Part shown: positions 21,676-59,596 of the stretch, piece after piece
How positions within the stretch are numbered: position 1 is the stretch's first letter
Layout: the number at the start of each line of letters is the position of its first letter
Assembly: GCF_001403635.1 (NCBI RefSeq)
Contig: NZ_LN879468.1
Span: 1,240,001-1,304,000 of the forward strand
From: Clostridium massiliamazoniense
Lineage (GTDB): Bacteria > Bacillota > Clostridia > Clostridiales > Clostridiaceae
Reading direction: 5' to 3'
DNA: 64,000 nucleotides
Made by a program: the position numbers and the translations under genes
The notes under the pieces: model-generated
Database searches by the model: none
Seen by the model: the letters and a program-made list of their open reading frames with translations, nothing else
Told to the model about the DNA's origin: nothing

Positions 21676-21691
21676 TAATTTTTCCCCCTTA

Positions 21692-23362: not shown

Positions 23363-23377
23363 AACTAAATCCCCCCC

Positions 23378-25036: not shown

Positions 25037-25041
25037 AATAA

Positions 25042-26124: not shown

Positions 26125-26175
26125 AATAATTCCCCCAATTTTTATTTTAAAACTTCACTTATATAATTAAACTCT

Positions 26176-26676: not shown

Positions 26677-26692
26677 TAATATATCCCCCTTT

Positions 26693-27952
26693 TTATAATT
26701 CATCTGGTGATGATATTTTTCCTAATATAGCTGAAGCAGCCGCAACTACTGGATTAGCTAAATATACCTCTGATTCAACATGCCCCATTCTTCCTACAAA
26801 GTTTCTATTAGTAGTGGAAACACATCTCTCTCCCTTTGCAAGTATACCCATATGCCCTCCTAAACATGGCCCACAAGTAGGTGTTGAAACTATAGCTCCT
26901 GACTCTATAAAAGTTCTTAATAAACCTTCTTCCATAGCTTGTAAATAAATTTTTTGTGATCCCGGAATAATTATAGTTCTAACTTGCTTCTTAACTTTTC
27001 TCCCCTTAAAAATTTCAGCTGCCATTCTTAAGTCTTCTATTCTTCCATTAGTACAAGAACCTATAACAACTTGATTTATCTCAACATTTCCTACATTATC
27101 TATAGTTCTTGTGTTTTCAGGTAAGTGTGGAAATGCAACTGTTGGTTTTAATGTACTTAAATCTATTTCATAAACTTTATCATATACAGCATCTTCATCA
27201 GCCTCAAAAACCTTCCATTCCCTTTTTCCATGTTCCTTTAAATATTCTATAGTTAACTCATCCACAGGAAATATTCCATTTTTAGCTCCTGCTTCAATGG
27301 CCATATTACTTACTGTAAATCTTGAATCCATTGATAAGTGCTTTACTCCCTCTCCTGTAAATTCCATAGATTTATATAATGCTCCATCTACTCCTATGGT
27401 TCCTATAATATGAAGTATTAAGTCTTTACCACTTACCCACTTACTTGGTTTATTCTTTAAAACAAATTTTATAGCTGAAGGTACCTTGAACCAACATTTT
27501 CCTGTAGCCATTCCTGCTGCCATATCTGTAGAACCTATACCTGTTGAAAAAGCACCTAAAGCTCCATAAGTACATGTATGAGAATCAGCTCCTATAACAA
27601 TATCACCTGCTACAACTAAACCTTTTTCAGGTAATATTACATGCTCTATTCCCATCTCTCCTATATCAAAGAAATTATTTACTTCCTTATCTCTAGCAAA
27701 TTCTCTTATGCATTTACATTGCTCTGCTGATTTTATATCTTTATTAGGTGTAAAGTGGTCTGGTACTATTGCAACCTTATCACTATTAAAAACTTTTTTA
27801 AGCCCCAACTTCTCAAATTCCTTAACAGCTACTGGTGTAGTTATATCATTTCCTAACACCATATCTAAATTAGCCTCTATTAATTGTCCAGCCTTTACTT
27901 TCTTTAATCCTGCATGTGCTGCAAGAATTTTCTGTGTCATAGTCATCCCCAT
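26693..27952 (-). CDS. leuC: 3-Isopropylmalate dehydratase large subunit
   Basis: LeuC carries the [4Fe-4S] cluster of the isomerase that converts 2-isopropylmalate to 3-isopropylmalate. Cluster ligands are Cys in [11 protein letters not shown] near residue 300 and in [10 protein letters not shown] near 360. The 419-residue length matches the prokaryotic stand-alone type and not the longer E. coli form. In organisms with citramalate synthase this enzyme also isomerises citramalate. The start [15 protein letters not shown] is standard, with GAGGGGG upstream. A 16-nt gap separates it from leuD at the corrected start. Confidence 0.95.
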
Positions 27953-27973
27953 AATTAAACATCCCCCTCTTTT

Positions 27974-29566
27974 TTAAAAATACATTTTTACATTTCTTTC
28001 AATGTCCTTTATTAATTTATATTCAATAGAGTCTACAAGAGCTATCCAACTTGCTTGAATAATATCCCTTGAAACCCCTACTGTACTCCAATTTTCATAT
28101 CCATCTGTTGATTCTATTAAAACCCTTACCTTAGCATTAGTAGCATTTTCTGTATCTAAAACTCTTACCTTATAATCAACAAGTCTCACATCTGCAAGCT
28201 TTGGATAAAAAACTTCTAAGGCCTTTCTTAAAGCCTTATCAAGAGCATTTACTGGTCCATCTCCCTCTGCTGCTGTTATTTGATTTTTTCCTTCCACAGA
28301 TATATTAACAAAAGCTGTTGAGCTATACTCTTTCTCTAATAATGACTGTTGTTCCCCTATAGTCTTAAAATTATTTAATTCAAAGAAAGGTTTATATTTC
28401 CCCATAATCTTTCTCATTACAATTTCAACAGTTCCCTCTGCTCCTTCAAATTGATAACCCTCATATTCTAATTCCTTTAATTTATCTGTTATTTTTCTTA
28501 CATCCTCTGAATCCTTAGATATATTAGGAAATATCTTTTGTATTTCCTTTAAAATTGTACTTTTTCCACTAACTTCTGAAATTAAAAATCTCCTCTTATT
28601 TCCTACTAAACTAGGATTTATATGTTCATAAGCTCTTGGTTCCTTTACAACGGCATCTATATGCATTCCACCCTTATGTGCAAAAGCTGAATTTCCAATA
28701 TAAGATTCTTCATCTCTTAATGTAATATTTGATATTTCAGCTATATATCTTGCTACTGATGTGAGATTTTCTAAGTTTTTCTCTTTAATTGCACTTAAAT
28801 TTAACTTCAAATGTATAGTTGCAATTATGCTACTTAAATTTGCATTGCCACATCTTTCCCCTATACCTAAGAAAGTTCCTTGGACATGATCAACACCATT
28901 TTGAACAGCCCCTATGGAATTAGCCACCGCCATAGAAATATCATTATGACAATGAATTCCCAGTTCACCATCTATAATTTTTCTTATTTCACTTACAATT
29001 TCACAAATTTCATTTACAAGAGTTCCCCCATTAGTATCACAAAGTACCACAGCTTTAGCTCCTGCTTCCTTTGCCCTTTTTAAAGTTTCAACTGCATAAT
29101 CTCTATTTTTTTTATATCCGTCAAAAAAATGTTCGGCATCAAATATAACTTCTTTTCCCTTATTAATTAAATAACTTATGGTATCATCAATCATGGCTAG
29201 GTTTTCTTCTAATGTAGTTTTTAAAATATTTGTAACTTGATAAGACCAAGCCTTCCCAAATATCACCACAGTTTTTGTATTTGCTTCAATTAAACTATTT
29301 AGATTTTTATCTTCCTTCGCTAAAATTCCCGCTCTTCTAGTACTTCCAAAAGCAACAATTTCTGAATTTTTTAACTTTACTTCATTAGCTCTCTTAAAAA
29401 ACTCCATATCTTTTGGATTTGACCCAGGGTTCCCAGCTTCTATATAATCAACTCCTATTCCATCAAGGACTTTACATATTTTCAACTTGTCCTCTACAGA
29501 AAAACTTATTCCTTGCCCCTGAGCTCCATCTCTAAGAGTTGAATCAAAAATTTTTATTTTTCTCAT
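27974..29566 (-). CDS. cimA: (R)-Citramalate synthase
   Basis: CimA condenses pyruvate with acetyl-CoA to citramalate. LeuC/D and LeuB then turn this into 2-oxobutyrate, the isoleucine precursor, without threonine deaminase. The N-terminus FDSTLRDGAQGQGISFSVED and the IEAGNPGSNPKD block (in place of the LeuA IEAGFP motif) are diagnostic of the CimA branch. So is the 530-residue length with a C-terminal regulatory domain. The metal-binding HCHNDISMAVAN motif is intact. GGAGGGG lies 5 nt before the ATG. The gene is second in the operon, directly after ilvN. Confidence 0.93.
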   Translation of the reverse strand: MRKIKIFDSTLRDGAQGQGISFSVEDKLKICKVLDGIGVDYIEAGNPGSNPKDMEFFKRANEVKLKNSEIVAFGSTRRAGILAKEDKNLNSLIEANTKTVVIFGKAWSYQVTNILKTTLEENLAMIDDTISYLINKGKEVIFDAEHFFDGYKKNRDYAVETLKRAKEAGAKAVVLCDTNGGTLVNEICEIVSEIRKIIDGELGIHCHNDISMAVANSIGAVQNGVDHVQGTFLGIGERCGNANLSSIIATIHLKLNLSAIKEKNLENLTSVARYIAEISNITLRDEESYIGNSAFAHKGGMHIDAVVKEPRAYEHINPSLVGNKRRFLISEVSGKSTILKEIQKIFPNISKDSEDVRKITDKLKELEYEGYQFEGAEGTVEIVMRKIMGKYKPFFELNNFKTIGEQQSLLEKEYSSTAFVNISVEGKNQITAAEGDGPVNALDKALRKALEVFYPKLADVRLVDYKVRVLDTENATNAKVRVLIESTDGYENWSTVGVSRDIIQASWIALVDSIEYKLIKDIERNVKMYF

Positions 29567-29584
29567 AAAAACCCCTCCTAATCC

Positions 29585-30106
29585 TTAGTATTCTTTACCA
29601 AGGTAATCTCCATAGGAGCTTATTTCTTTACTACCTCTTTCAATGGCTGCTATTCCTGTTCTGACAATTTCTTTTATTCCATAATCTTTCATTAAATTTA
29701 TTAAAGCAGTAACCTTACTTTCATCTCCTGTAAGTTCTATGGTTAAAGCTTCTTTAGCTATATCTACAATTTTACATCTAAAAATATTTACTATTTCATT
29801 TATAGCTCCTCTTTCCTCTTGAGAAGCTTTTACCTTTATAAGCACTAACTCTCGACAAACAGAATTATCTGAATTTATATTAATAATCTTTTTAACATCC
29901 TGTAATTTGTTTAATTGTTTTATAAACTGATCTAAAATTTCATCATTTCCTGTTAAAGTTATAGTCATTCTAGAAATATTTTCATCCTGAGTTTTTCCAA
30001 CAGTTAAACTTTCTATATTGAACCCTCTTCTAGAAAATAATCCTGAAACCCTACTTAAAACTCCAGAAGAATTACTAACTAAAACTGATAATACATGTCT
30101 TTCCAT
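29585..30106 (-). CDS. ilvN: Acetolactate synthase small (regulatory) subunit
   Basis: The regulatory subunit activates the large subunit and confers feedback inhibition by valine. The N-terminal ACT domain is clear (LSVLVSNSSGVLSRVSGLFS, then RRGFNIESLTVG, residues about 5-45). A second ACT-like C-terminal half follows (RELVLIKVKA). The 173-residue length is normal for the ilvN/ilvH type. AAGGGGG lies 8 nt from the ATG. It is the first gene of the branched-chain operon, behind a roughly 230-nt leader. It is unusual only in being separated from ilvB by six genes. Confidence 0.95.
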   Translation of the reverse strand: MERHVLSVLVSNSSGVLSRVSGLFSRRGFNIESLTVGKTQDENISRMTITLTGNDEILDQFIKQLNKLQDVKKIININSDNSVCRELVLIKVKASQEERGAINEIVNIFRCKIVDIAKEALTIELTGDESKVTALINLMKDYGIKEIVRTGIAAIERGSKEISSYGDYLGKEY

Positions 30107-37261: not shown

Positions 37262-38437
37262 TTATTTTACTGTTGTTATATCTACATCAGCTTCATAATC
37301 TATTCCTTCAACATTAAAGCCAAATAATCTAAAGAATTCATTTCTCATTTCTGCAAGGTCTGTTAATTCATATACATTAGATGTTTCTATACCAGGCCAA
37401 ATTTCTTTAACTGTACTTTGAAGTGGCTCTGCCATTTCCCAGTCATCCATTCTTATTCTACCTTCTTCATCTAAGTTTAATTCTCTATCTCCATAAACTT
37501 CTTCGAACAATCTGTAAATCTGCTCTATACAACCTTCATGAGTTCCTTGTTCTTTCATTAATTTATATAATAACGCTGAATAAAGAGGTACTATAGGAAT
37601 AGCTGCACTTGCTTGAGTTACTAAAGCCTTATTTATTGAAATATATGATTTTCCATTTACTGAAGCTAATATTTCATCTATTTTTGCAACTGATTTCTCT
37701 AAATCCTTTTTAGCTCCACCAATAGTTCCTTCTCTGTAAATTGGGTCAGTTACTCTTGGACCTATGTAACTATAGGCTATAGTTTTAGCATTTTCATTTA
37801 AAACTCCTGCTTTACTTAAAGCTTCCATCCACATTATCCAGTCTTCTCCACCCATAACTTTTCTTGTTCCTTCAATTTCCTCTTCTGTGGCTACCGGCAT
37901 TGTTACATCCATAATTTCTCCAGTGTGGAAATCAACAGTCTTACAAGTAAATGGTTCACCTATAGTTTTTAAACATGAACTATATAATTCACCTGTATTT
38001 GGGTCTTTTCTTTTTGGTGCTGCTAAAGAATATATTATTAAATCAACTTTTCCCATATGTTCTTTTATTAAATTAATAACTTCTTCTTTAACTTCATTTG
38101 AAAAAGCATCTCCATTAACTTTTATATATTCTAATCCTTTTTCATTGAAAAATTGTCCTAAAGCTTCTGTATTATACCATCCAGGTGAAGCTGTTCTTTT
38201 TTCAGTAGGTTCTTTCTCATAACTTACACCTATAACCTTCGCATTACAAGCTACTCCTGAAACTATAGATGATGCTAATCCATATCCTGTTGATGATCCT
38301 AAAACTAAAACATTTTTTACATCGTTAATTGTACCTTTATCTTCAACATAATTTACTTGCTTTCTAACATTTTCTTTACAACCTTGGGGATGTGCTGTTG
38401 TACATATAAATCCCCTAAATTTAGGTTTTATTATCAT
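37262..38437 (-). CDS. fabV: trans-2-Enoyl-CoA/ACP reductase (FabV/Ter family)
   Basis: FabV reduces trans-2-enoyl thioesters with NADH, the last step of each fatty-acid elongation round; the related Ter enzymes reduce crotonyl-CoA. The 391-residue protein shows the Rossmann motif GSSTGYGLASSI. The catalytic YX8K appears as YREGTIGGAK, with Tyr near 235. The family block SLAAPKRKDPNTG is also present. The longest frame starts at 38473, but the ATG at 38437 follows AGGAGAGG and gives the standard MIIKPKFRGFICTTAHPQG. A perfect FabT-type palindrome lies 25 nt upstream, linking it to fatty-acid control. Confidence 0.93.
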   Translation of the reverse strand: MIIKPKFRGFICTTAHPQGCKENVRKQVNYVEDKGTINDVKNVLVLGSSTGYGLASSIVSGVACNAKVIGVSYEKEPTEKRTASPGWYNTEALGQFFNEKGLEYIKVNGDAFSNEVKEEVINLIKEHMGKVDLIIYSLAAPKRKDPNTGELYSSCLKTIGEPFTCKTVDFHTGEIMDVTMPVATEEEIEGTRKVMGGEDWIMWMEALSKAGVLNENAKTIAYSYIGPRVTDPIYREGTIGGAKKDLEKSVAKIDEILASVNGKSYISINKALVTQASAAIPIVPLYSALLYKLMKEQGTHEGCIEQIYRLFEEVYGDRELNLDEEGRIRMDDWEMAEPLQSTVKEIWPGIETSNVYELTDLAEMRNEFFRLFGFNVEGIDYEADVDITTVK

Positions 38438-38461
38438 TATTTCCTCTCCTTCCAAAAATAC

Positions 38462-38474
38462 TTTGATAATCAAA
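38462..38474. promoter_or_regulatory. FabT-type operator in front of fabV
   Basis: On the minus strand the site reads TTTGATTATCAAA, a perfect palindrome around a central base. It matches the FabT (MarR-family) binding consensus known from streptococci. A TATAGT -10 (38474-38479) ends at its edge, so a bound repressor would cover the start of transcription. Confidence 0.65.
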
Positions 38475-38578
38475 CTATATTTATTAATATATCATATTTT
38501 CTATTTTATTGTAATATCTTTTAATTATTTTATCTAATAACTGGTGTTTAATTAACAAACTTACTCCTCTTAGTCAAA

Positions 38579-38611
38579 AATTCAGAGACCAAGTGTAAGG
38601 ATCTCTGAATT
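38579..38611 (-). terminator. Terminator of the FabK-like gene
   Basis: A perfect 10-bp stem (38579-38588 with 38602-38611) with a 13-nt loop is followed by TTTTTGAC on the minus strand. It lies 35 nt after the stop codon and separates the gene from fabV. Confidence 0.8.
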
Positions 38612-38646
38612 AATTCTTTTTCTATCTACAATCTCTCTAGCTAAAC

Positions 38647-39720
38647 TTATTCTGGTATTGATAATAATTCTTGTTCTAATTCATCCATAAGTTCTTTAAC
38701 TGGTACTATTTTTTCTACTCTTCCAGCATTAGCACCACAGAATACAAGACCTGTTTCAACATCTCCTTCAACAGCTCTTATTAAAGCATCACTTATACAA
38801 TAAGGAGTTGTTGCTGGATTACATGGTAGTATACATCTATAACATTTATCTACCTTAACATTACCTTCTTCTGTTCTTTTAACAAAGTCATTTCTTAAAG
38901 CTCTTCCAGGCATTCCTACTGGACTCTTAACTAATGTTATATCATCTCCATTAGTTTTTAAGTAAGCTTTCTTGAAGTTTTCGTGAGCATCACACTCTTC
39001 TGTTGCAACAAATCTAGTTGCCATTTGAACTCCACTCGCTCCCATTTTTAAATACTTTGCTATATCCTCACCAGTGAATACTCCACCTGCAACAACTAGT
39101 GGTATCTTTTTGTTGTATTTCTCTTCGTATATTTTAATTTCTTCAAGTATTTTTGGAATTTCATCATCAAAAGTTTCAAAGGAACTAAATACTTCATCTT
39201 TTTTAAAACCTAAGTGACCACCAGCCTTTGGTCCTTCAACAACTACTAAATCAGCAGTTTTATTGTAGTTTCTATCCCAAAGTTTTAATATTACTCTAAC
39301 TCCTTTAGCTGATGATATGATTGGAGCTATTTTAGTATTGCTTCCTTCTACTAATTCAGGAAGGTTTCTTGGAAGTCCTGCTCCTGAAACAACTAAATCT
39401 ATACCTTCTTCAACAGCAGCCTTAACGTAGTCTTCGTAATTACTAATTGCAACCATTGCATTTATACCTATTACTCCACCATTTGCATTTTCTCTTGCTT
39501 TTTTTATGTGTTTCTTTAAGGCTCTTATATTTGATTCTAATAAGTTAGTTCTGAAATCTGGTTCGTCATACCCTGGAAAGGCTGTTGATATAAGGCCTAT
39601 TCCGCCAGCTCTTGCTACTGCTGATGCTAATCCTGATAAGGATACTCCAACACCCATGCCCCCTTGAATTATTGGTAATCTTGCAACTAAGTCCCCAATT
39701 CTTAACGGTTCTATCTTCAT
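38647..39720 (-). CDS. NPD-family flavoprotein (FabK / nitronate monooxygenase-like)
   Basis: A 357-residue FMN-dependent TIM-barrel protein of the 2-nitropropane dioxygenase family, which includes enoyl-ACP reductase II (FabK) and nitronate monooxygenases. Visible features are PIIQGGMGVGVS at the start, VVSGAGLP near 123, VEGPKAGGHLGF near 180, VVAGGVFTGEDIAKYLKMGASGVQMATRF near 230-258 (in two overlapping FMN-phosphate motifs), and a Cys cluster CYRCILPCN near 315. The last is seen in a clostridial subgroup. The start was moved from 39786 to the ATG at 39720, 7 nt after GGAAG. The FabT-like site upstream favours a fatty-acid role, but nitronate oxidation cannot be excluded. Confidence 0.85.
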   Translation of the reverse strand: MKIEPLRIGDLVARLPIIQGGMGVGVSLSGLASAVARAGGIGLISTAFPGYDEPDFRTNLLESNIRALKKHIKKARENANGGVIGINAMVAISNYEDYVKAAVEEGIDLVVSGAGLPRNLPELVEGSNTKIAPIISSAKGVRVILKLWDRNYNKTADLVVVEGPKAGGHLGFKKDEVFSSFETFDDEIPKILEEIKIYEEKYNKKIPLVVAGGVFTGEDIAKYLKMGASGVQMATRFVATEECDAHENFKKAYLKTNGDDITLVKSPVGMPGRALRNDFVKRTEEGNVKVDKCYRCILPCNPATTPYCISDALIRAVEGDVETGLVFCGANAGRVEKIVPVKELMDELEQELLSIPE

Positions 39721-39778
39721 AAATGTACTTCCTTTCCTATTCAAAAGCATTTGACCATAAAACTTTATCACCAAATAC

Positions 39779-39791
39779 TTTGTCAATCAAA
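39779..39791. promoter_or_regulatory. FabT-like operator in front of the FabK-like gene
   Basis: On the minus strand it reads TTTGATTGACAAA, two mismatches from the fabV site. A TATAAT -10 (39799-39804) lies 7 nt away in the same relative arrangement as at fabV, which argues that the match is not chance. Confidence 0.5.
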
Positions 39792-40055: not shown

Positions 40056-42539
40056 TTAAAATATTATTTGTACTTTAAATAAATCTCCATCTATATCTAT
40101 AGATAAATTTCCACCTTGTAATTCCACTAAACTATTAGCTATAGAAAGCCCTAAACCAGAACCTTCCGTATGCCTTGACGCATCCCCTCTTTTAAACCTT
40201 TCTCTTAATTCATTTGGATCACAATTAAGTTCATAGGCTGATATATTTTTTATTTCAAATATAACCTTATCCTCCACCTTTTTTAAATCTATATATACCC
40301 TTGAATTTTTCATTGAATATTTTAATGCATTTCCTATTAAGTTATCAAAAACTCTCCATGTCCTTGCTCCATCAAGCTTTAATATTATCTTTTCCTTAGG
40401 TATATTTATTTTGAATTCTAATTCACTACTTTCTATTTTTTCTTTGAATTCACCAATGGTTTGTCTTAAAATTGCTACTACATCCACTTCTTCAATATTT
40501 AAAGATACATTTCCTGAAGATGCCTTTGTTGCTTCAAATAAATCTTCTATTAACACTTTAAGTCTTTTTGACTTATTTTCTAAAATAGCTAAATATTCTT
40601 CTTTTTGCTCTTCTGTTATATTTTCTTTTTGAAGCAAATCAACATAATTTATTATTGATGTTAAAGGTGTTTTTAAATCATGAGATACATTAGTTATAAG
40701 CTCTGTTTTCATTCTTTCACTTTTAAGTTCCCCTTGAATTGCTGCCTTAAATCCAGTATTTATATTGCTTAAATTTTCACTTATAACATTTAACTCTTTA
40801 CTATTTCTTTTCTTCAAGTCAATGTTGAACTCACCTTTTACAATACTTTTACTAGCTTCTTCTATTTCTGATAATTGTACAAAAAATTTTCTTGATAAAA
40901 CCCAAAATACAACTGGCACTGAAAGAACCATCATACTTCCAATGAAAAACCAAAAGAATGAATACTGTGACTTTGATATAACAATAAAGTATAAACCTAT
41001 TACTAAATATAGTGACACTGCCATAGTATATACAATTATGTCTTTAGGTATATTTCTATTATCCATGTTATTTAAAATTAAGTCTTTAAATCGACTTGTT
41101 GACTTTGCTAAATTAATTGTTTTTTCTTCTACTCTACCCTTATTTACATTTTTAATATTTTTCTCTTTTTTTCCTTCTCTTCCAAACAACCTAAAAACCA
41201 AATTTTTAAATCCAATTAATATATTTACAATGCATAGATTTTTTAAAAACCCATTTATAAAACCTTTTTGAAAAATATATCTAATATACCTACCTGTTAA
41301 AATAGCCATAATTGATGCAACCATAAAAATCGGCAAGAATATAACCCTTTGTGTTCCTACACTTATTATTAACATGTATACACCAATAAATAATAAAGTT
41401 ATAAAAGCTATTTTAAATTCTAACCATAATTTACAATAGGCTCTTGTAATAAGACTTTGCCCCTTATATGGTACTATAGTAGCTCCAAGAAATAATACAA
41501 ATAATACTCCTAGAATAACAAGCATATAATCTAAATTCTCTGATAAACTATAAATTAATTTACGGTATTCTAAATAACTTCCTGGTTGAAAATTTCTTTT
41601 TGTTATAGCAAACTTTAAAGTTGTATCTTTTATATCTTCTCCTATTTCTGATTTTATTTTATAAATTAATTTATCATAAACTTCTGCTGAAACACTATTA
41701 TTTTCAACTGTCTTAAATACTTTAAAATCATCAATGTTTTTTCCAAAGTGAACTTCAAAATAAACAGTTCCATTCTTTAAATTTTCTATTTCTTTATTAT
41801 TATAAAGAACAACCTTTCCATCATCACTTATTAATTTATAGTCAAAACCTATATTACTATCTTCATAAGGTCTTATACTACTCATTGTACTATACTTTAT
41901 TTTTCCTTTAAGGTCTTTTGACTCATTCTTAATTTCATTTTCTCTTTGTTCCTTTAAATTTTTTAATTCTTCTACCCTATTGTTATATTTACCTAATACC
42001 CAATCTATATTATTAACTATATCAGACTTTGTACTATAGGCATTTTCATCTCCACTTCCCCAACTTTCTAATTCCTTAGAATACTTATTTTTTAGTTCTT
42101 CTAAATTAACATCTTTCTCTAAATGATAGTGTTGTCTAATTTCCTCTAATTCTTTCTTTTTTTCTTCCTCTGCTAATTTTAATTGTCCATTATACTCCTC
42201 ATCATTTTTAGCTAAATCATTATTCATATTTTCATCAATAACCTTAGGTGCATTTTCCTTGTCTATAAGTAATTGACTAAACTTATACTCATCTATTATT
42301 GACGTATCTCTATAATAGTCCCCATGCCAATAATTAAAACTTTTAAATCCACTTATGTCATTTATAAAGCTTCCACTTCTGAAATAATCAATTTCTCTTT
42401 TATTTAAAACATTATTTAGAAATAAATTTAATCCTATACCAGTTATTATTATGGCTAATATAGATATTATGAAGCCTTTACTTATTTTATTTTTTACTTC
42501 TTCACTATTAACTTCATTGGTCTTCAATTTTGTAACCAA
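40056..42539 (-). CDS. Multi-membrane sensor histidine kinase (catalytically complete)
   Basis: An 827-residue sensor kinase. There is a membrane segment at about 22-45 and a large extracytoplasmic region (about 46-330) with a charged coiled coil at 120-210. About five more membrane segments follow (335-560), then a HAMP-like linker. The kinase core holds SHDLKTPLTS with phosphoacceptor His620, N-box WRVFDNLIGNALKYS, ATP-lid RFKRGDASR and G-box GSGLGLSIAN. The start is TTG inside the 3' end of the response regulator gene (26-nt overlap), supported by AAGGTGG 9 nt upstream. It shares its entire architecture with the kinase at 43373-45793. The signal is unknown. Confidence 0.9.
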   Translation of the reverse strand: MVTKLKTNEVNSEEVKNKISKGFIISILAIIITGIGLNLFLNNVLNKREIDYFRSGSFINDISGFKSFNYWHGDYYRDTSIIDEYKFSQLLIDKENAPKVIDENMNNDLAKNDEEYNGQLKLAEEEKKKELEEIRQHYHLEKDVNLEELKNKYSKELESWGSGDENAYSTKSDIVNNIDWVLGKYNNRVEELKNLKEQRENEIKNESKDLKGKIKYSTMSSIRPYEDSNIGFDYKLISDDGKVVLYNNKEIENLKNGTVYFEVHFGKNIDDFKVFKTVENNSVSAEVYDKLIYKIKSEIGEDIKDTTLKFAITKRNFQPGSYLEYRKLIYSLSENLDYMLVILGVLFVLFLGATIVPYKGQSLITRAYCKLWLEFKIAFITLLFIGVYMLIISVGTQRVIFLPIFMVASIMAILTGRYIRYIFQKGFINGFLKNLCIVNILIGFKNLVFRLFGREGKKEKNIKNVNKGRVEEKTINLAKSTSRFKDLILNNMDNRNIPKDIIVYTMAVSLYLVIGLYFIVISKSQYSFFWFFIGSMMVLSVPVVFWVLSRKFFVQLSEIEEASKSIVKGEFNIDLKKRNSKELNVISENLSNINTGFKAAIQGELKSERMKTELITNVSHDLKTPLTSIINYVDLLQKENITEEQKEEYLAILENKSKRLKVLIEDLFEATKASSGNVSLNIEEVDVVAILRQTIGEFKEKIESSELEFKINIPKEKIILKLDGARTWRVFDNLIGNALKYSMKNSRVYIDLKKVEDKVIFEIKNISAYELNCDPNELRERFKRGDASRHTEGSGLGLSIANSLVELQGGNLSIDIDGDLFKVQIIF

Positions 42540-43212
42540 TACCCCACACCACCTTTAAATATCTAGGTTCCTTAGGGTTAATCTCAATTTTTTCTCTTAT
42601 TCTTCTTACATGAACTGTAACTGTATCTGTATTATAAGCTGGCTCATTCCACACTCTTTCATAAATTTCTTCTATGGAAAATACTCGTCCCTTATTCTCC
42701 ATAAGTAGCTTTAATATCTTAAACTCAATTGGAGTTACTTTTAATACTTCTCCATCTAAAGTAAATTCCTTTTTATCTAAATTGAGTTCAAGTCCACCAG
42801 TTCTTAATATTACATCCTTTTTTTCTTCCACCCTTGAAGAATATTTTAAATATCTACGTAGCTGAGATTTAACCCTTGCTATAAGTTCTAAAGGATTAAA
42901 TGGTTTTGTTAAATAATCATCTGCTCCCATATTTAATCCTATTATTTTATCTGTATCCTCAGATTTTGCAGAAAGCATAATAACAGGTATTTCCATAGTT
43001 TCTCTTAGCTTCTTAATAGTTCTAACACCATCAAGTTTAGGCATCATCACATCTAAAATCACTAAATCTACCTTATTATTTTTTAAAACATTTAAAGCTT
43101 CAATACCATCATAAGCCTTTAATATGTTATACCCTTCTGAGCTTAAATAAATTTCTATTGCATTAGTTATTTCAACCTCATCATCAACCACTAAAATAGT
43201 ATACTGTTCCAT
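42514..43212 (-). CDS. OmpR/PhoB-family response regulator
   Basis: A 232-residue regulator with receiver domain (acidic pocket Asp10/Asp11, phosphoacceptor Asp54 in VILDVMMPKLDG, Lys in LTKPFNP). The C-terminal winged-helix domain is of the VanR/PhoB type (TPIEFKILKLLMENKGRVFS, then VTVHVRRIREKIE). AAGGGGG lies 8 nt from the ATG. It sits between two paralogous kinases and overlaps the downstream one, so it is probably their shared output. The targets are unknown; the ABC transporter gene pair at 46-48 kb is the nearest candidate. Confidence 0.93.
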   Translation of the reverse strand: MEQYTILVVDDEVEITNAIEIYLSSEGYNILKAYDGIEALNVLKNNKVDLVILDVMMPKLDGVRTIKKLRETMEIPVIMLSAKSEDTDKIIGLNMGADDYLTKPFNPLELIARVKSQLRRYLKYSSRVEEKKDVILRTGGLELNLDKKEFTLDGEVLKVTPIEFKILKLLMENKGRVFSIEEIYERVWNEPAYNTDTVTVHVRRIREKIEINPKEPRYLKVVWGIGYKIEDQ

Positions 43213-43372
43213 TTAAAATTCCCCCTTAATTAAATCTACATAAACTTCGATTAAAATTATAGCATAGCTACTTCCTACTTTTTCCACAGTTTACTATTTA
43301 TTTTTAAATATATAATAACTTTTTAAATATAAAGCAAATATTTATTAATGATTAAAAGGCTTACTTTAACTT

Positions 43373-45793
43373 TTATTTTTTAAATCTTATAGTTACTTTA
43401 AACAAATCTCCATCTATATCTATAGCCATTGTTCCTCCCTGCAATTCAACTAAACTATTAGCAATTGATAACCCAAGACCTGATCCTTCAACCACTTCTT
43501 CTAATTTAGAATTTTTAATTTTGCTCCTTAATTGGTTAGGACTACAATTCAATTCATAACCTGATACATTTTTTATATCAAAAATAACATAGTCTTCTTC
43601 TTCATATAAGTTTAAATAAACTCTTGAATAGTCTAAGGAATACTTAATAGCATTACTGATTAAATTTTCAAATACCCTCCATGTTCTAGCTCCATCTAGT
43701 TTTAATATAATTTTATCCTTAGGCATTTTAACCTTAAAAACAACCTTGCTATTATTTATATCCTCTTCAAATTCTCCTAAAGTTTGTCTTAAAACAGCTA
43801 CTATATCGACATCATCAATATTTAATTTTATGTTACCTGTAGATGCTTTTGTTGCTTCAAAAAGATTTTCAATTAGAACTTTTATATGCTTTGATTTAGC
43901 TTCTAATGTTTTTAAACATTCCATTCTTTCTTCTTGTGAAAGATTTTTATCTTTTAACAAATCTACATAATCAATTATTGAACTAAGAGGTGTTTTTAAA
44001 TCATCTGAAACACTAGTTATAAGTTCAGACTTTAACATTTCTCCTTTCATTTCTTTATCTATAGCATCTCTAAAGCCAATATTAATATTACTTAAATTTT
44101 TGCTTATAGGATTTAAAATTATATTATGTCTTTCTTTTAATTCAATATTAAAATCACCAGTTACTATTTTTTCTGTGCTTTTCTTAATATCATTTATTTG
44201 GATAAAGAAACTTCTTACCATAAAAAAAATTAAAATAGGAACTATAAATATAAATAAAAATAACATCAAAAATGTATAAGAATAGCCGTCATAAGGTCTA
44301 TAAAAAATAGAAATTACAAATCCTATTAAAATTAAGATTATAGAAAATCCTCCGGTGATTACTTGAACTCTCTTATCTAAAGTCATATTTTCCAACTTAT
44401 TCTTAGCTTTATATATAACTTCCTTTCCTTCATTAGAGCTATTTTCTTTAACTTGTTTAATACCTTTTAATGTTCTGTTGCTAAATTTAACAGCTAATGA
44501 TTTCTCCTTTAAAAGCTTTAAACCATTATTATTTATATCTCTTATATCTTTACCTATTAATATACTTAGAACCAAAGGAATAATTAAACATATCACAATA
44601 AGCATTATGGTATTTACAATAATAAAAGGACTTACAATAATGTCATAAGTCATTTTCTTAATCCCCCATATATTGGTTATTCCTAAAATATAAATTAAGA
44701 CTATTAAAATTCTTACTTCCGTATATATATTTCCATAGAATCTTGAAAGTTTCCCTCTTTTCCTTGAATCTATAAAATAAGATAAAAGGAATACTACAGT
44801 ACATAACACTAAATTCAAAATATTATAAGTAAAATCAAAAAGAAAGGTATTCACAAGCTTCTCTCCGTAAATTACATTTCCGAAAGATAATGTTTCTGGA
44901 GTTATAGCTATGGTTATAGTAGCATTTCTAACCTCTCCACTTACTGCGGCCACAAAATTTATTAATCTTCCTCTTTCATCACTGTCTTCTTTTTTAACAT
45001 TGCTAGAAATATTAATAAGTTCAATATCCTCATTATTTTTTCCTATATGGTATTCATAATAAAATAAAGGATTTTTATTTAGTAAAGCTCCAATATTAGT
45101 GGTATTATTTACTATCCTTTCACCATTATCTGATTTTATTTCATAAAAAAACCCTAGTTTTTTACTACTAAAATTTTCATTATTTAAATTTAATGGCTTA
45201 TTGATAAACTTATCCTTCCATCTCTGAGCCTCCTGTTCCATATTAAACTTAAATTCCTCATTATTTGAAGTAATCCCCCTTACCTTAGTGTCATATTGAT
45301 TCTTTGCATTATTTATTTCTTCATTAATTTTCTTTAATAATTCTTTATCACTTTTATTATTTGGATCCTCAATAGCATTAGAATTATCCTTATATAACTT
45401 ATCTATATCTTCATCGGCATCAATATTATAATTCTCTTTTATTTCTTTAAACCTTTTCTCAAGTTCTTCCTTTGCTCCCTTAAGTTCAGCTTGGTAATAA
45501 GCTTCCCTTGAAGAAAGTTCCTTGTTTAGCTCCTCATCCATATCTTTCTTCATTTCATCTATGGACTTTCCACTAGAATAAAAATACTGTTCACCTATTC
45601 TTCCTAAACCCGAAAATATGACACCAGCATGAAAATTTTTAAAATATTCTCCCCTATCATCATTACTCACAACCAAGCTATGAGCATAACTTAAAGAAAT
45701 AGCTATAGCAAATAAGAAGGTTAAAATTATAATAATAGAATCTCTATAATATTTTATTCCCCTCACCTGCTTTTTTCTTTCCTTAACCTTCAA
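43373..45793 (-). CDS. Degenerate sensor kinase (pseudokinase paralog)
   Basis: This 806-residue protein has the same layout as the 827-residue kinase downstream: first membrane segment near 17-40, a coiled-coil-rich extracytoplasmic region, several membrane segments, HAMP-like linker and kinase core. However, the H-box reads SDDLKTPLSS, with Asp597 (codon GAT) in place of the phosphoacceptor His. The ATP-lid is NSKLEEVV where the paralog has RGDASRHT. The N-box WRVFENLISNAIKYS and G-box GSGLGLSIAN are intact, and there is no frameshift. The frame opens at GTG 45814, but TTG at 45793 lies 8 nt behind AGGGGGG and is the start. It is probably a non-phosphorylating sensor or heterodimer partner. 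Confidence 0.85.
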   Translation of the reverse strand: MKVKERKKQVRGIKYYRDSIIIILTFLFAIAISLSYAHSLVVSNDDRGEYFKNFHAGVIFSGLGRIGEQYFYSSGKSIDEMKKDMDEELNKELSSREAYYQAELKGAKEELEKRFKEIKENYNIDADEDIDKLYKDNSNAIEDPNNKSDKELLKKINEEINNAKNQYDTKVRGITSNNEEFKFNMEQEAQRWKDKFINKPLNLNNENFSSKKLGFFYEIKSDNGERIVNNTTNIGALLNKNPLFYYEYHIGKNNEDIELINISSNVKKEDSDERGRLINFVAAVSGEVRNATITIAITPETLSFGNVIYGEKLVNTFLFDFTYNILNLVLCTVVFLLSYFIDSRKRGKLSRFYGNIYTEVRILIVLIYILGITNIWGIKKMTYDIIVSPFIIVNTIMLIVICLIIPLVLSILIGKDIRDINNNGLKLLKEKSLAVKFSNRTLKGIKQVKENSSNEGKEVIYKAKNKLENMTLDKRVQVITGGFSIILILIGFVISIFYRPYDGYSYTFLMLFLFIFIVPILIFFMVRSFFIQINDIKKSTEKIVTGDFNIELKERHNIILNPISKNLSNINIGFRDAIDKEMKGEMLKSELITSVSDDLKTPLSSIIDYVDLLKDKNLSQEERMECLKTLEAKSKHIKVLIENLFEATKASTGNIKLNIDDVDIVAVLRQTLGEFEEDINNSKVVFKVKMPKDKIILKLDGARTWRVFENLISNAIKYSLDYSRVYLNLYEEEDYVIFDIKNVSGYELNCSPNQLRSKIKNSKLEEVVEGSGLGLSIANSLVELQGGTMAIDIDGDLFKVTIRFKK

Positions 45794-45970
45794 GTACCTA
45801 TCCCCCCTAAACACTTTTAATTAATTAGATAACTAAAAAAATCTCTAACTTAAACTTCAACTTATTAAGCTTTACCCTTATAATAACTACCTAAAATTAC
45901 AAAGTAATAATTTAATTTCTTACAAAAAGCTTAAAATTTCCTTTAAAGAACAAAATAATCATATCAAAAA

Positions 45971-46005
45971 AAGAGAATGTATCAAATTACAGATACATCC
46001 TCTCT
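45971..46005 (-). terminator. Terminator of the ABC transporter operon
   Basis: A stem of about 12 bp (45971-45983 with 45992-46005, imperfect) is followed by eight Ts on the minus strand. It lies 78 nt after the ATPase stop codon and separates the transporter genes from the kinase genes, although read-through is possible. Confidence 0.78.
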
Positions 46006-46082: not shown

Positions 46083-46775
46083 TTAACAAAATTCTTTCCT
46101 TAATTTACTTTCCTCTATTTCTCCATCTGCTATTTTAATCATTCTATCACACTGTTCTCCTATATTTTTTTCATGGGTTATAATTATAACAGTTTTTCCT
46201 TCCCTATTTATTTCCTTTAGCATATCCATTACTTCCATTCCTGTTTTTCTATCTAATGCTCCAGTAGGTTCATCTGCTAAAATTATTTTAGGACTGTTTA
46301 TTAAAGCTCTCCCAATTGCAACTCTTTGTTTTTGTCCACCTGATAATTGATCTGGAGTTTTTAGTTTATGTGCTCCAAGACCTAGTTTATCTAACATATC
46401 CATTGCAGTCTTTACTTTAGGTAACTTTTTCTTTGAATATGATAATGGTAAGGAAACATTATCTATTAAGTTATAATCATATAGTAAATTAAAATTTTGA
46501 AATATAAATCCAATTTCTTCATTTCTTATCCTTGCAAGTTCTTTTCCTTTCAATAAACTAACTTCTTTATTATTTAAATAATATTTTCCTTCTGTTGGAT
46601 TATCTACACAACCTAAAATATTTAATAATGTTGATTTTCCAGAACCTGATGGTCCCATTATAGAAATAAATTCCCCTTCATTTATAGTTAAATTAATATT
46701 TTTTAAAGCAACAGTTTCGGCTTCAGTACCTTTCCCATAAGTTTTCCCTATATCAATAAGCTTTATAATTTCCAT
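46083..46775 (-). CDS. ABC transporter ATP-binding protein (MacB/LolD type)
   Basis: A 230-residue ATPase with Walker A GPSGSGKST near 41-49, Q-loop QNFNLLYDY, signature LSGGQKQRVAIGRAL near 143, Walker B ILADEPTGALD and H-loop ITHEKN. The TGALDRKTG segment is typical of the MacB/LolD/FtsE-like class that pairs with FtsX-type permeases. These systems usually export or mechanically release peptides and antibiotics. GGGGGAG lies 5 nt before the ATG, and the permease stop is 14 nt upstream. Confidence 0.94.
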   Translation of the reverse strand: MEIIKLIDIGKTYGKGTEAETVALKNINLTINEGEFISIMGPSGSGKSTLLNILGCVDNPTEGKYYLNNKEVSLLKGKELARIRNEEIGFIFQNFNLLYDYNLIDNVSLPLSYSKKKLPKVKTAMDMLDKLGLGAHKLKTPDQLSGGQKQRVAIGRALINSPKIILADEPTGALDRKTGMEVMDMLKEINREGKTVIIITHEKNIGEQCDRMIKIADGEIEESKLRKEFC

Positions 46776-46789
46776 AAAAACTCCCCCTA

Positions 46790-48070
46790 TTAATTTCCTT
46801 TCACAAGTTCCACAATATTCATTTTCTTTATCTCTCTAACTGGAATTATAGCTATTAAGAATGATATAATAACTACTAAAATTAAGTTAATTCCTATTAA
46901 AGTTAATCCTACACCTACCTTAATATTTAATATTAAAGATATTATAGAAGCTATAATAACCATAACTAATACTTCTAAGAATATTTCCTTTGCTATTTCA
47001 TTTAAAGTTGCTCCCATAGCTATTTTAATTCCAAATTCTCTTTTTCTTTTATTTAATTGTCCTAACATTATACAACTTGTCCCTATAATAGATATAACAA
47101 GTAATAAAAATCCTAAAGCCAAAGAAGATTTAACATCTCTCTCATAACTTTCTATAACCGTGGTAGTATTTGATAAACTAAATAAATTAGCATATAAATT
47201 ATGTTTTTTTAACTTTTCATTTAAAATTTTTACAAGTTCATCTTCCTTAACTCCTATTCCTCTTTCAAGGAAAATAGCTGCATTTACACTTTCTCCAATC
47301 GCATTATAGCCTATAAAATTTTCTACAGATGGAATTACCTTTATTCCATCACTATATAAAAGATTTTGAGCAAATAATTCTATTGGCCCATTTGATATTG
47401 GTATAGCATTTCTTTCTAAAAATCCAACCACTTCAAAGGTTAAAAAATCTTGCTTTTTATCTACTTCAAAAGGCCCTGTCCTTACAGCCTCAGAAATATA
47501 TTTAATTTTAAAAGTATCCCCTAGTTTTTGAGTTTTTTCAAATTCATTTCCTAAAAGTATTGGTATATTTTCTTTTTTATAATCCTTTTTAAAATCCTCA
47601 GCCTTTAAATTTCTACCACTACTTATTTTAAAATTATAATGATTTAAAAAATTTTCATTTATAAGTACCTCTCCTATATATGCTCCTTTATCCACCTCTA
47701 ATACATTTTCATACTTCTTAGGAATATTATCCCAAAATACTCCGTGTATATTAACATTTGAACCATATAAATAATAATCTTTTATTATTCCTGCTCTTTT
47801 TAATTCCTCATATATGTCTTTTCCATCTAAAGCATTTAATATGACACTCCATATATCTTCTTCATTTTTTTCATATCCACCTATTGGACCAATTCTAACC
47901 ATAGTAGTATTATTTATATCAAACAAACTTTCAATGCCCTTTTTTCGATTTTGTGAATCTTCAAAAAGCCTTCCACTTGTATTTACCATTGTTAAACCTA
48001 TACTAAGCTGTATTATAATTAGAAATCCTATAGCTCCTATTTTTTTAATTCTTTTAATTGCCTTAAACAT
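46790..48070 (-). CDS. FtsX/MacB-type ABC transporter permease
   Basis: A 426-residue permease with one N-terminal membrane segment (about 12-30) and a large extracytoplasmic domain (about 35-300). Three C-terminal membrane segments make up the FtsX domain (LALGFLLLVISIIGTSCIML and following). The protein ends in REIKKMNIVELVKGN. This is the MacB-like topology. The longest frame begins at 48094. The ATG at 48070 follows GGGAGG by about 7 nt and is used instead. The start lies 2 nt beyond the stop of the fragment at 48072, and its ribosome site is within that fragment. Confidence 0.88.
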   Translation of the reverse strand: MFKAIKRIKKIGAIGFLIIIQLSIGLTMVNTSGRLFEDSQNRKKGIESLFDINNTTMVRIGPIGGYEKNEEDIWSVILNALDGKDIYEELKRAGIIKDYYLYGSNVNIHGVFWDNIPKKYENVLEVDKGAYIGEVLINENFLNHYNFKISSGRNLKAEDFKKDYKKENIPILLGNEFEKTQKLGDTFKIKYISEAVRTGPFEVDKKQDFLTFEVVGFLERNAIPISNGPIELFAQNLLYSDGIKVIPSVENFIGYNAIGESVNAAIFLERGIGVKEDELVKILNEKLKKHNLYANLFSLSNTTTVIESYERDVKSSLALGFLLLVISIIGTSCIMLGQLNKRKREFGIKIAMGATLNEIAKEIFLEVLVMVIIASIISLILNIKVGVGLTLIGINLILVVIISFLIAIIPVREIKKMNIVELVKGN

Positions 48071-48071
48071 A

Positions 48072-48332
48072 CTATTCCTCCCTAAGCATTTCAATAGGTT
48101 GAATTTTTGTATTATTATTCTTTATATAAGAATTTAAGCTATTTATAGCTTTATCTAAATCTTCCTTTTCTCCATTTATAATTAAAGTTAATGTAGGATC
48201 ATTAAAATCTATTCCACTTTTAAATTTTTTAAAAATATCAAGTGGTATTGTAATCTTAGGTTCCTTTTCATATGATATACTACAATTTTCAAATCTAATT
48301 GTTTTTATATTACCTCCATCATTTATTTCCAA
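48072..48332 (-). pseudogene. Remnant of a second FtsX-type permease gene
   Basis: The 86-codon frame begins only at a TTG with no usable ribosome site and contains no membrane segment. It ends IQPIEMLREE, the classic C-terminal ending of FtsX/MacB-type permeases (P-I-E-x-L-R-x-E). The preceding LTLIINGEKEDLDKAIN and YIKNNN resemble extracytoplasmic parts of such permeases. The simplest reading is an internally deleted, 5'-truncated permease whose end survives because it carries the ribosome site of the next gene. A real small protein is less likely. The adjacent DNA upstream carries a transposon-like relic that may mark the deletion. Confidence 0.5.
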
Positions 48333-55601: not shown

Positions 55602-56756
55602 TTAAATATATGGAATTACTCTTATTTCAATATTATCTGCCTCTTCTAAAACCTTATTTATAGTTGAACCTCTTACCATAGTTTGAAGCTTAGTTCTTCT
55701 ACTATGTCCTAAAATTATTTGTGTTATATTTGCTTCCTTAGAAAAATCCACTATAGCTTTTGATACTGAACGACTTTTTATCTCTACGATTTCAGCCCCT
55801 AAACTTAAAGCTAATTTTTTATTATCTTCAAGACTTAATATATCAGTTTCTTTTTTAGCTAATGGATTTGTACAATCAACTATTAAAACATAAAGTTTAC
55901 ATTTATATCTTCTTGCAGTTCTTGCTCCATGTCTTATTAACTTTGCACTTTTAGGATTTGAACTTATGCAAACTAACACCTTTTCATTTATTTTAACATT
56001 ATCATTAACTTCAGCTTTTTCCTTATGGTCCATAAGATTTATATCTACTTCATTAGCTGTTTCTCTTAAAGATAATTCTCTTAAAGCTGTAAGATTTCCT
56101 TTTGTAAAAAAGTTTGCAAGGGAGCGTTCTATATTCTCATTTTTATATACTTTTCCACTTTTTAATCTATTTATAAGCCCTTCTGGTGGTAAATCTATTA
56201 CCATAAGCTCATCTGCTTCTTGAAACACCTTATCTGGTACTGTTTCCCTAACCTTAACCCCTGTTATTTCTTCTATAATATTATTTAAGCTTTCTATATG
56301 TTGGATATTAACTGTCGTTAATACATTAATTCCACTATCTATTAGTTCTTTAACATCTTCCCATCTCTTTTTATTTTTAGAACCCGGTACATTAGTATGT
56401 GCTAATTCATCAACAATAACTGTTTTAGGCTTTAATCTTAATATTTCTTCTACGTCCATTTCCTCTAAAATAATATTTTTATAATTTATTTTCTTTCTAG
56501 GCACTATTTTTAAATTTTTTATTTGTTTTTGAGTTTCTTTTCTGCCATGGTCTTCAACATAACCAATAATTATATTTTCTCCATTTTTAAGCCTATCATT
56601 TCCTTCATTTAACATACTATAAGTTTTTCCAACTCCAGGGGAATATCCAACAAAAATTTTTAAATCTCCCTTGCCAATCTTTCTTTTAATTTTTTCTTCC
56701 TCTTCTTCTTCCTTTTTGCATCTTTTTAATGCTTCTTCTGGTGTTATTCTTTCCAT
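55602..56756 (-). CDS. kdpD: Short KdpD: sensor domain without histidine kinase
   Basis: The 384-residue protein corresponds to the N-terminal part of KdpD. It holds the KdpD domain with Walker A GYSPGVGKT near 37-45, Walker B VIVDELAHTN near 113 and IQHIESLNN, then a universal-stress-protein domain (about 255-384, with ILGHSRRTKLQTM and RGST). The membrane segments, GAF and histidine kinase of full-length KdpD (about 900 residues) are absent. It ends with a normal stop before a terminator, so this is a naturally short form, not a truncation. USP domains of KdpD bind c-di-AMP in other Firmicutes. GGAGGG precedes the ATG, and no kdpE is present. Confidence 0.85.
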   Translation of the reverse strand: MERITPEEALKRCKKEEEEEEKIKRKIGKGDLKIFVGYSPGVGKTYSMLNEGNDRLKNGENIIIGYVEDHGRKETQKQIKNLKIVPRKKINYKNIILEEMDVEEILRLKPKTVIVDELAHTNVPGSKNKKRWEDVKELIDSGINVLTTVNIQHIESLNNIIEEITGVKVRETVPDKVFQEADELMVIDLPPEGLINRLKSGKVYKNENIERSLANFFTKGNLTALRELSLRETANEVDINLMDHKEKAEVNDNVKINEKVLVCISSNPKSAKLIRHGARTARRYKCKLYVLIVDCTNPLAKKETDILSLEDNKKLALSLGAEIVEIKSRSVSKAIVDFSKEANITQIILGHSRRTKLQTMVRGSTINKVLEEADNIEIRVIPYI

Positions 56757-56778
56757 ATTTATCCCTCCTAAAAAATAA

Positions 56779-56802
56779 AGAGACTGTATTTAATCAATCT
56801 CT
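56779..56802 (-). terminator. Intrinsic terminator just upstream of kdpD
   Basis: An 8-bp stem with one G:U pair (56779-56786 with 56795-56802) is followed by TTATTTTTT on the minus strand and then directly by the kdpD ribosome site. It should lower kdpD expression relative to kdpFABC unless it is overcome. Confidence 0.6.
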
Positions 56803-56873
56803 AAACTTACATTATCCCTATAAATATATTCTTTAGTATTTACCTTACTACATAGTTTGCTAAAAAGCCAAAG

Positions 56874-56905
56874 AGGGATATATCTATTATTTATGATACA
56901 TCCCT
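56874..56905 (-). terminator. Second hairpin between kdpC and kdpD
   Basis: AGGGATATATC (56874-56884) pairs with GATACATCCCT (56895-56905) over 11 bp with one mismatch. A moderately T-rich tail follows on the minus strand, 9 nt past the kdpC stop codon. It probably ends most kdpFABC transcripts. Confidence 0.55.
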
Positions 56906-56913
56906 ATCTAGTA

Positions 56914-57504
56914 CTATATTAATTTTAAAGCTTTGGCTACATTTAAGTTAAGGTCTAATACATTTATTAAGACAGTTCCATTTGGTGATAAATTTTCTTT
57001 ACTATCCATTATAAATTTATTAAGTTCTTCCTTACTTATACCTGTATTTTCTGCAACTCTATCTACTTGTATTTGAGCTGCTTTTAATGAAATATCTGGA
57101 TCTAATCCTGAAGCTGATTCTGTAAATAAATCTGCTGGTAAGTCTTCTCTCTTAACAGTTGGATTTTCCTTAAGGAACTTATTAACAGCTTTATTTACAC
57201 TTGTTTTTAAAGCTTGTGAATTAGGACCATAAGTAACATCTCCTGTTGAAGGTACTTCTCCATTTTCATTATGACTACAATCATAATTTATAGTTGATGG
57301 TCTTCCTGTAAAGAATTTAGGATTATTAAATTCTTGACCCACTAAAGCTGATCCAACGACTTTATCATTTACATATATTAAACTACCATTAGCTTTATTG
57401 TGCATAGCTGCTTGTCCTACTCCTGTTAGGCAAAGAGGATATATAAGACCACAAACTATAACAAAAAATATTGCTAGCTTTATGCTTATTTTTAAATGTT
57501 TCAT
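56914..57504 (-). CDS. kdpC: Potassium-transporting ATPase subunit KdpC
   Basis: KdpC is the single-pass membrane subunit that assists K+ and ATP affinity of the KdpFABC pump. The 196-residue protein has one N-terminal membrane segment (about 8-28). The family motifs are FTGRPSTINYD, SGLDPDISLKAAQIQVDRVA and a C-terminal VLDLNLNVAKALKLI. GGAGG lies 8 nt before the ATG, and the start is 13 nt after the kdpB stop codon. Confidence 0.95.
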   Translation of the reverse strand: MKHLKISIKLAIFFVIVCGLIYPLCLTGVGQAAMHNKANGSLIYVNDKVVGSALVGQEFNNPKFFTGRPSTINYDCSHNENGEVPSTGDVTYGPNSQALKTSVNKAVNKFLKENPTVKREDLPADLFTESASGLDPDISLKAAQIQVDRVAENTGISKEELNKFIMDSKENLSPNGTVLINVLDLNLNVAKALKLI

Positions 57505-57517
57505 TTATTTTTCCTCC

Positions 57518-59578: not shown

Positions 59579-59596
59579 ATTAATCAGCCCACCTCT

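What the first reader, a model, noticed from the sequence alone, without database searches (positions are those of the whole stretch)
40056..45793. Two paralogous multi-membrane sensor kinases flank one response regulator, and one is a pseudokinase
The upstream kinase (43373-45793) lacks the phosphoacceptor His: its H-box reads SDDLKTPL (Asp597, codon GAT) where the paralog has SHDLKTPL (His620, CAT). Its ATP-lid is NSKLEEVV where the paralog has RGDASRHT. N-box, G-box and reading frame are intact over 806 codons, so it is a maintained protein, not debris. Two independent losses of catalytic motifs suggest it evolved into a ligand-sensing or inhibitory partner that forms heterodimers with the active kinase, or competes with it for the single response regulator. 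I know of no described system with this exact layout.
Basis: partly seen in the sequence, partly recalled or inferred. Interest (0 to 1): 0.8.

Follow-up and report, generated by a model that had tools for sequence, protein, structure and literature searches.

The report
Disarmed sensor kinase beside working twin
A low-GC bacterium carries a second copy of a membrane sensor kinase that has lost its phosphate-carrying histidine and ATP lid but kept the rest of its shape, so it probably acts as a regulator of its working twin and their shared gene switch; such inactive partner kinases are known elsewhere, and this looks like a home-made example.

Summary
The 806-residue protein at 43373-45793 has Asp (GAT) where its neighbour has the phospho-acceptor His (CAT), and its ATP lid is gone. 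Of 53 distinct family kinases read, 52 have His; this one has Asp. All 6 well-conserved lid positions are lost, against 2 of 29 in the rest of the catalytic domain; N-box and G2 are kept. The two kinases are sister paralogs (100/99), and the odd one's branch is about six times longer. In 40 of 40 related loci one regulator precedes one kinase of this family, so regulator plus second kinase looks ancestral and the first kinase a later, disarmed duplicate.

Outside the lid it stays constrained, aligns with its twin without gaps over 292 columns, and keeps the Asp and Thr of the dephosphorylation motif. Best reading: a kinase-dead second sensor tuning the shared regulator through mixed dimers with its twin, or as a phosphatase. 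This is inferred, not shown.

It has precedents (FasBCA, RocA-CovS, ChrS-HrrS, DivL). Function and organism remain unproven.

The parts
43373..45793 (-). P0001: pseudo-histidine kinase, 806 aa, TTG start; six hydropathy-predicted TM helices with a ~280-residue stretch after TM1 (taken to be extracytoplasmic), linker, DHp, CA
44003..44005 (-). codon GAT, Asp597, at the phospho-acceptor position (His in 52 of 53 distinct family kinases)
   Evidence: position computed from the 45793 start
43490..43525 (-). degenerate ATP lid, residues 757-768; all 6 conserved columns changed (E757S, R758K, F759I, G762S, D763K, R766E)
   Evidence: coordinates computed from the 45793 start
42514..43212 (-). P0003: response regulator, receiver plus Trans_reg_C (OmpR/VanR type), 232 aa
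40056..42539 (-). P0002: paralogous sensor histidine kinase, 827 aa, His620, no loss among 45 columns conserved at 95%; overlaps the regulator gene by 26 bases
43213..43372 (-). 160-base gap between pseudokinase and regulator genes with an extended -10-like TGCTATAAT (TATAAT at 43261-43256, 44 bases ahead of the regulator start); possible own promoter of the regulator-kinase pair
   Evidence: consensus resemblance only
45970..46005 (-). terminator-like hairpin with T run after the ABC ATPase gene
   Evidence: 1 found, 1.1 expected in shuffles, so weak on its own
45958..45985 (-). promoter-like TTGATA-16-TATGAT ahead of the pseudokinase gene
   Evidence: 69 such sites found in the region against 62.1 expected, so not evidence alone
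46083..48094 (-). ABC ATPase (46083-46775) and FtsX-like permease (46790-48094) upstream on the same strand; link to the signalling genes not shown
   Evidence: no consistent linkage in 40 related loci

Best explanation
A cognate pair (regulator P0003 plus kinase P0002) gained a second kinase by local duplication. That copy, P0001, kept its own six-helix membrane sensor, its linker, dimerisation helices and the core of its ATP domain, but lost the phospho-acceptor His and the ATP lid. Shown: sequence losses, sister paralogy, faster evolution, continued constraint outside the lid. Inferred: P0001 cannot autophosphorylate; it works as a kinase-dead second sensor acting through its DHp domain. 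Most likely mode: mixed dimers with P0002 that shift the balance from kinase to phosphatase, so that the signal read by P0001 gates (probably lowers) phosphorylation of P0003. Acting alone as an RR~P phosphatase is the close rival.
For: Asp597 and lid loss: 11 of 45 columns conserved at 95% lost, against 0 in P0002; 14 of 56 at 90%, against 1. Losses in CA centre on the lid: 6 of 6 against 2 of 29. Sister paralogs at 100/99, end branches 0.57 (P0001) and 0.10 (P0002). Constraint kept: CA without lid dN 0.19, dS 1.40; DHp dN 0.26, dS 1.11. Gapless alignment over 292 columns from the last TM through linker, DHp and CA, as a mixed dimer would need. Sensors 25% identical against 64-66% in DHp and CA, so a different input with a similar output module. 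Usual layout is regulator plus one kinase: 40 of 40 related loci, none with a second kinase of this family in the stretch fetched. Precedents for inactive partners acting through dimers or contact: PMC12675982 (passages), PMC9491836 (abstract), PMC7028121 (passages).
Against: No interaction, phosphorylation or expression data. No ortholog of P0001 was found, so fixation over time is unshown; one genome only. Six conserved DHp positions changed (H597D and N594S, T604S, Y626C, L637I, D643N), which could weaken regulator or partner contact. The pseudokinase gene is set off by 160 bases and may be transcribed apart. Codon use barely separates its frame from frame +2 (0.924 against 0.907). The 40 related loci come from distant relatives, not from the same genus.
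Confidence: 0.45

Rival explanations
1. P0001 works on its own as a sensor-gated phosphatase or sink: a homodimer that binds phosphorylated P0003 and removes its phosphate, without touching P0002.
For: Asp598 and Thr601, the motif positions after the lost His, are kept; in CrdS the residue at His+4 (N375) is the one needed for phosphatase but not kinase activity, and H371A leaves an RR~P half-life of 2.6 min against 0.7 (wild type) and 53.5 (no kinase) (PMC3510030, passages). N-box and G2 kept.
Against: That D and T are invariant in the 46 aligned members anyway. In CrdS N375T was only partly active, and PleC H610A lost both activities (same paper). Lid loss may remove the nucleotide-dependent help to phosphatase activity (recalled).
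Confidence: 0.25
2. P0001 is a DivL-like reader: its disarmed output domain senses phosphorylated P0003 and reports to P0002 or to another partner.
For: DivL, also with a substituted phospho-acceptor, lacks kinase and phosphatase activity and detects DivK~P (PMC4211667, passages). DivL is among the solved relatives of P0001.
Against: DivL keeps its F box whereas P0001 lost its lid; no third partner is visible in the neighbourhood.
Confidence: 0.1
3. P0001 is a failing duplicate on the way to becoming a pseudogene.
For: Long branch, relative-rate excess with 5 of 6 outgroups at p below 0.02, changes in catalytic residues.
Against: No stop or frameshift in 806 codons; dN well below dS outside the lid although dS is high (1.1-1.6); 14 of 14 conserved columns kept after the lid.
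Confidence: 0.15
4. The Asp is a sequencing or assembly error in an active kinase.
For: One base separates GAT from CAT.
Against: Six conserved lid residues are changed as well, in frame.
Confidence: 0.02

Closest known systems
FasBCA of group A Streptococcus (PMC12675982; passages read)
   Same: Two sensor-kinase-like proteins and one regulator from one locus; heterodimer by two-hybrid; the authors propose that one kinase (FasC) is a pseudokinase.
   Different: In the authors' model FasC supplies the phospho-accepting His and FasB the kinase domain; here one protein has lost both His and lid. Gene order is kinase-kinase-regulator, and the regulator is ComE-like rather than OmpR-like.
RocA with CovS (PMC7028121, passages; PMC7380576, abstract)
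   Same: Multi-membrane pseudokinase that contacts a working kinase and changes regulator phosphorylation.
   Different: RocA keeps a candidate His (dispensable) and raises CovR phosphorylation by repressing CovS phosphatase; not encoded in the covRS locus (recalled).
ChrS pseudokinase with HrrS, Corynebacterium (PMC9491836; abstract)
   Same: Paralogous kinases form heterodimers, one of them catalytically dead in the CA domain.
   Different: Arose by a frameshift in laboratory evolution; two two-component systems, each with its regulator.
DivL of Caulobacter (PMC4211667; passages)
   Same: Phospho-acceptor His replaced, fold and RR docking retained.
   Different: Tyr, not Asp; other boxes kept; works in the CckA-CtrA pathway (partly recalled).
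RetS-GacS of Pseudomonas (mentioned in PMC12675982; RetS structures listed)
   Same: Kinase-like protein that inhibits another kinase, heterodimers reported.
   Different: Hybrid kinases, unlinked genes (recalled).

Membership tests
Catalytically active HisKA histidine kinase (P0001) | Phospho-acceptor His in the H-box | tested here: not met
   Asp597; His in 45 of 46 aligned members and 52 of 53 distinct kinases
Catalytically active HisKA histidine kinase (P0001) | Conserved ATP lid (ERFxRGDxSR in this family) | tested here: not met
   6 of 6 conserved columns lost
Catalytically active HisKA histidine kinase (P0001) | N-box and G2 box | tested here: met
Pseudo-histidine kinase (broad kind) | HisKA and HATPase_c folds recognisable | tested here: met
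   Pfam scores 42.5 and 33 bits, both above cut-off
Pseudo-histidine kinase (broad kind) | No autophosphorylation | not testable with these tools
   needs biochemistry
Pseudo-histidine kinase (broad kind) | Maintained by selection outside the catalytic residues | tested here: met
   dN 0.19, dS 1.40 in CA without lid; rests on one pair of paralogs
FasBCA-type three-component system | Two kinase-like proteins and one regulator encoded together | tested here: met
FasBCA-type three-component system | Complementary parts: one protein gives the His, the other the kinase domain | tested here: not met
   P0001 lost both, P0002 keeps both
FasBCA-type three-component system | Heterodimer without homodimers | not testable with these tools
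   needs two-hybrid or pull-down
VanS/VanR (NCBIfam) | Score above the curated cut-off | tested here: not met
   VanS model 124.4 (P0001) and 187.1 (P0002) bits against 400; VanR-ACDEGLN 288.2 against 350

The most novel reading that the evidence does not exclude
A cell made its own negative co-receptor by duplicating a cognate sensor kinase inside the locus, disarming it at both the phospho-acceptor and the lid, and letting its sensor diverge, so that one regulator is driven by one signal and quenched by another through mixed dimers or a sensor-gated phosphatase.
Probability: 0.35. Interest if true: 0.6.

Novelty: new variant of a known kind. Interest (0 to 1): 0.4.

Why it matters
Pseudo-histidine kinases are usually met far from their active parent (recalled, not surveyed). 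Here parent, disarmed copy and shared regulator sit side by side, and in the CA domain the losses are nearly confined to the lid, so the step from working kinase to regulator could be studied in one small locus. If it is a sensor-gated phosphatase or mixed-dimer partner, it shows a simple way to add a second input to a two-component system without a second regulator.

Tried and rejected
Orthologs of P0001 were sought and not found. The one genome-contig scan returned 8 loci, none titled as a clostridium, best 32% identity. The viral-contig scans gave nothing or 8 loci all reading His in the H-box (7 seen, L022). Plasmids (one search capped at 5000 records) and phages gave no record with one place covering 80% of the query, and the sensor half alone found nothing in plasmids at E up to 1. 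The window's own genome is not held. Other kin came from the phylum, kin and order of G001/G066 and from one 2.6 Mb Acetoanaerobium record filed as a plasmid.

A tandem regulator-kinase duplication followed by loss of the first regulator would explain the order kinase-regulator-kinase; no regulator remnant was found in the gap upstream of P0001, so this stays open.

Shared binding sites between the intergenic gaps: only AT-rich matches of low score. Link to the ABC transporter: not consistent in related loci. Rfam and tRNA scans of the window: none. Codon use as proof of the frame: too weak. Script error of mine: I kept the first instead of the best domain per protein, which dropped P0001 and 9 others from that table; found, corrected. 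Residue numbers in the printout run on another count; those (806 numbering) are used here.

Rows dropped: 13 of 59 unique domain sequences scored under 200 bits (other kinase families or fragments) and were left out of the 46-row alignment. Eight of the 42 places had no locus then and are not in that alignment; seven of these were read later and have His, one (G415) was not read. Neighbourhoods were fetched for 38 of the 42 places plus W01 and G155, from 33 genomes or records; G353, G430, G362, G415 and both G151 places were not fetched. Six of the 40 stretches are cut short by contig ends.

Full report
What is there. Three genes lie on the minus strand: P0001 (43373-45793, 806 aa), the OmpR/VanR-type regulator P0003 (42514-43212) and P0002 (40056-42539, 827 aa), the last two overlapping by 26 bases. 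Both kinases have one N-terminal membrane helix, about 280-296 residues that are taken to be extracytoplasmic, several further helices (six in all by hydropathy in P0001, seven in P0002, one of them marginal), a linker, a DHp and a CA domain. The sensors match no Pfam family at E up to 0.1. P0001 has Asp597 (GAT) where P0002 has His620 (CAT), and RSKIKNSKLEEVVEGSGLGL where P0002 has RERFKRGDASRHTEGSGLGL. N-box and G2 are kept. The G1 region of this family mostly reads [KRS]NxS rather than DxGxG, so that feature is not a loss specific to P0001.

More than chance. Of 59 unique domain sequences, 46 scored at least 200 bits and were aligned: 45 have His and one, P0001, Asp. Over all loci held at the end, 53 distinct kinases of this family were read; 52 have His and P0001 has Asp. 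Of 45 columns conserved in at least 95% of the 44 other aligned members, P0001 lost 11 and P0002 none; among the others, left out in turn, the most was 4, apart from 9 in the distant row L021. At the 90% threshold P0001 lost 14 of 56 and P0002 1: for P0001 6 of 6 lid columns, 2 of 15 before and 0 of 14 after the lid in CA, and 6 of 21 in DHp; lid against the rest of CA p = 1.7e-5.

History. In a maximum-likelihood tree of the 46 rows the two window kinases are sisters (100/99), with end branches of 0.57 for P0001 and 0.10 for P0002. Relative-rate counts agree in direction but are milder: P0001 is the odd one at 37 sites and P0002 at 13 against L024 (p = 0.00094); over six outgroups the ratio runs from 1.7 to 2.8, five give p below 0.02 and the sixth (L011) 0.092. 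In 40 neighbourhoods from 33 other genomes or records (up to 8 kb each side, six cut by contig ends) a regulator like P0003 lies upstream of the family kinase on the same strand in 40 of 40, and a second kinase of this family lies in the stretch in 0 of 40; kinases of other families do occur near in six. In L074 a separate 388-aa frame lies between regulator and kinase, and in L072 the regulator is in two frames. The kinase of L106 missed my motif filter because it reads SHDLKTPV; it has His. So regulator plus one kinase is the usual state, and the extra kinase upstream is peculiar to the window among what could be seen.

Still under constraint. Between the paralogs, by a Nei-Gojobori count, dN/dS is 0.19/1.40 in CA without the lid and 0.26/1.11 in DHp; in the lid dN is 1.01 with dS saturated (17 codons only); in the sensors dN is 0.81 with dS 1.16, amino-acid identity 25%. 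Since most amino-acid change lies on the P0001 branch, P0001 itself must have been under purifying selection outside the lid; dividing dS evenly between the branches is my assumption. The alignment has no gap over 292 columns up to the C-terminus.

How it may work. Without His and lid, autophosphorylation is very unlikely (established knowledge of HisKA kinases; not tested). What is kept is what dimerisation, docking and dephosphorylation need: register and helices, the Asp at position +1 and the Thr at +4. In CrdS the residue at +4 is needed for phosphatase but not kinase activity, the acidic residue at +1 for kinase but not phosphatase, and loss of His reduces phosphatase activity only modestly; N375T in CrdS was partly active, and in PleC loss of His costs both activities (PMC3510030, passages). 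In Streptococcus agalactiae 11 of 12 HisKA kinases carry the E/DxxT/N motif (PMC11502775, passages). Both a mixed dimer biased to phosphatase and a stand-alone phosphatase fit; I put the mixed dimer first because the precedents I saw for inactive partners mostly act on a working kinase. Residues at positions recalled as regulator-specificity sites in DHp helix 1 are mostly the same in the two proteins, but that list is from memory.

Expression. A terminator-like hairpin separates the ABC transporter genes from P0001, a promoter-like site overlaps and follows it, and an extended -10-like sequence lies 44 bases ahead of the regulator. The first two kinds of site occur about as often in shuffles and the third was found by eye; they leave open that P0001 is transcribed apart from the regulator-kinase pair.

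Comparison. Closest by layout is FasBCA: two kinase-like proteins heterodimerise, one regulator, one partner proposed to be a pseudokinase (PMC12675982, passages). The division of labour differs. Others are RocA-CovS, ChrS-HrrS and DivL. My nine paper searches (open-licence PubMed Central only, some lists capped, such as 15 of 5,632) showed no listing that described a clostridial case of this layout. I saw passages or the abstract of eight papers (PMC12675982, PMC9491836, PMC7380576, PMC7028121, PMC11481889, PMC3510030, PMC11502775, PMC4211667), none in full, and no supplement. PMC11481889 mentions another kinase without a catalytic His in Caulobacter that might heterodimerise.

Limits. 

Verdict. 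Observation confirmed; interpretation partly supported; a new variant of a known kind, the pseudo-histidine kinase. Interest 0.4.

Noticed in passing
55602-61279 (-): Potassium-pump genes that look like kdpA, kdpB and kdpC (by eye) followed by a short KdpD of 384 aa with only the KdpD and Usp domains and no kinase domain; no kdpE-like frame of 120 aa or more in the neighbourhood.
   Followed up: partly
37262-39786 (-): A trans-2-enoyl-CoA reductase and an NMO-family (FabK-like, recalled) enzyme sit directly downstream of the kinase locus.
   Followed up: no
48072-48332 (-): Small 86-aa frame overlapping the start of the FtsX-like permease frame, no Pfam match above cut-off.
   Followed up: no
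19060-30106 (-): Long run of branched-chain amino-acid genes (named by eye), but no Rfam element such as a T-box reaches its cut-off anywhere in the window.
   Followed up: no
61950-63287 (+): FemAB-family protein carrying a long charged stretch that looks coiled-coil by eye.
   Followed up: no
L074 5994-8900; L072 5782-6532: In one related genome the sensor and kinase halves seem to lie in two frames; in another the regulator is in two frames. Either split genes or sequence errors.
   Followed up: no
L096, L097, L101 about 9440-11465: A second regulator-kinase pair of another kinase family follows the family pair in three related genomes.
   Followed up: no
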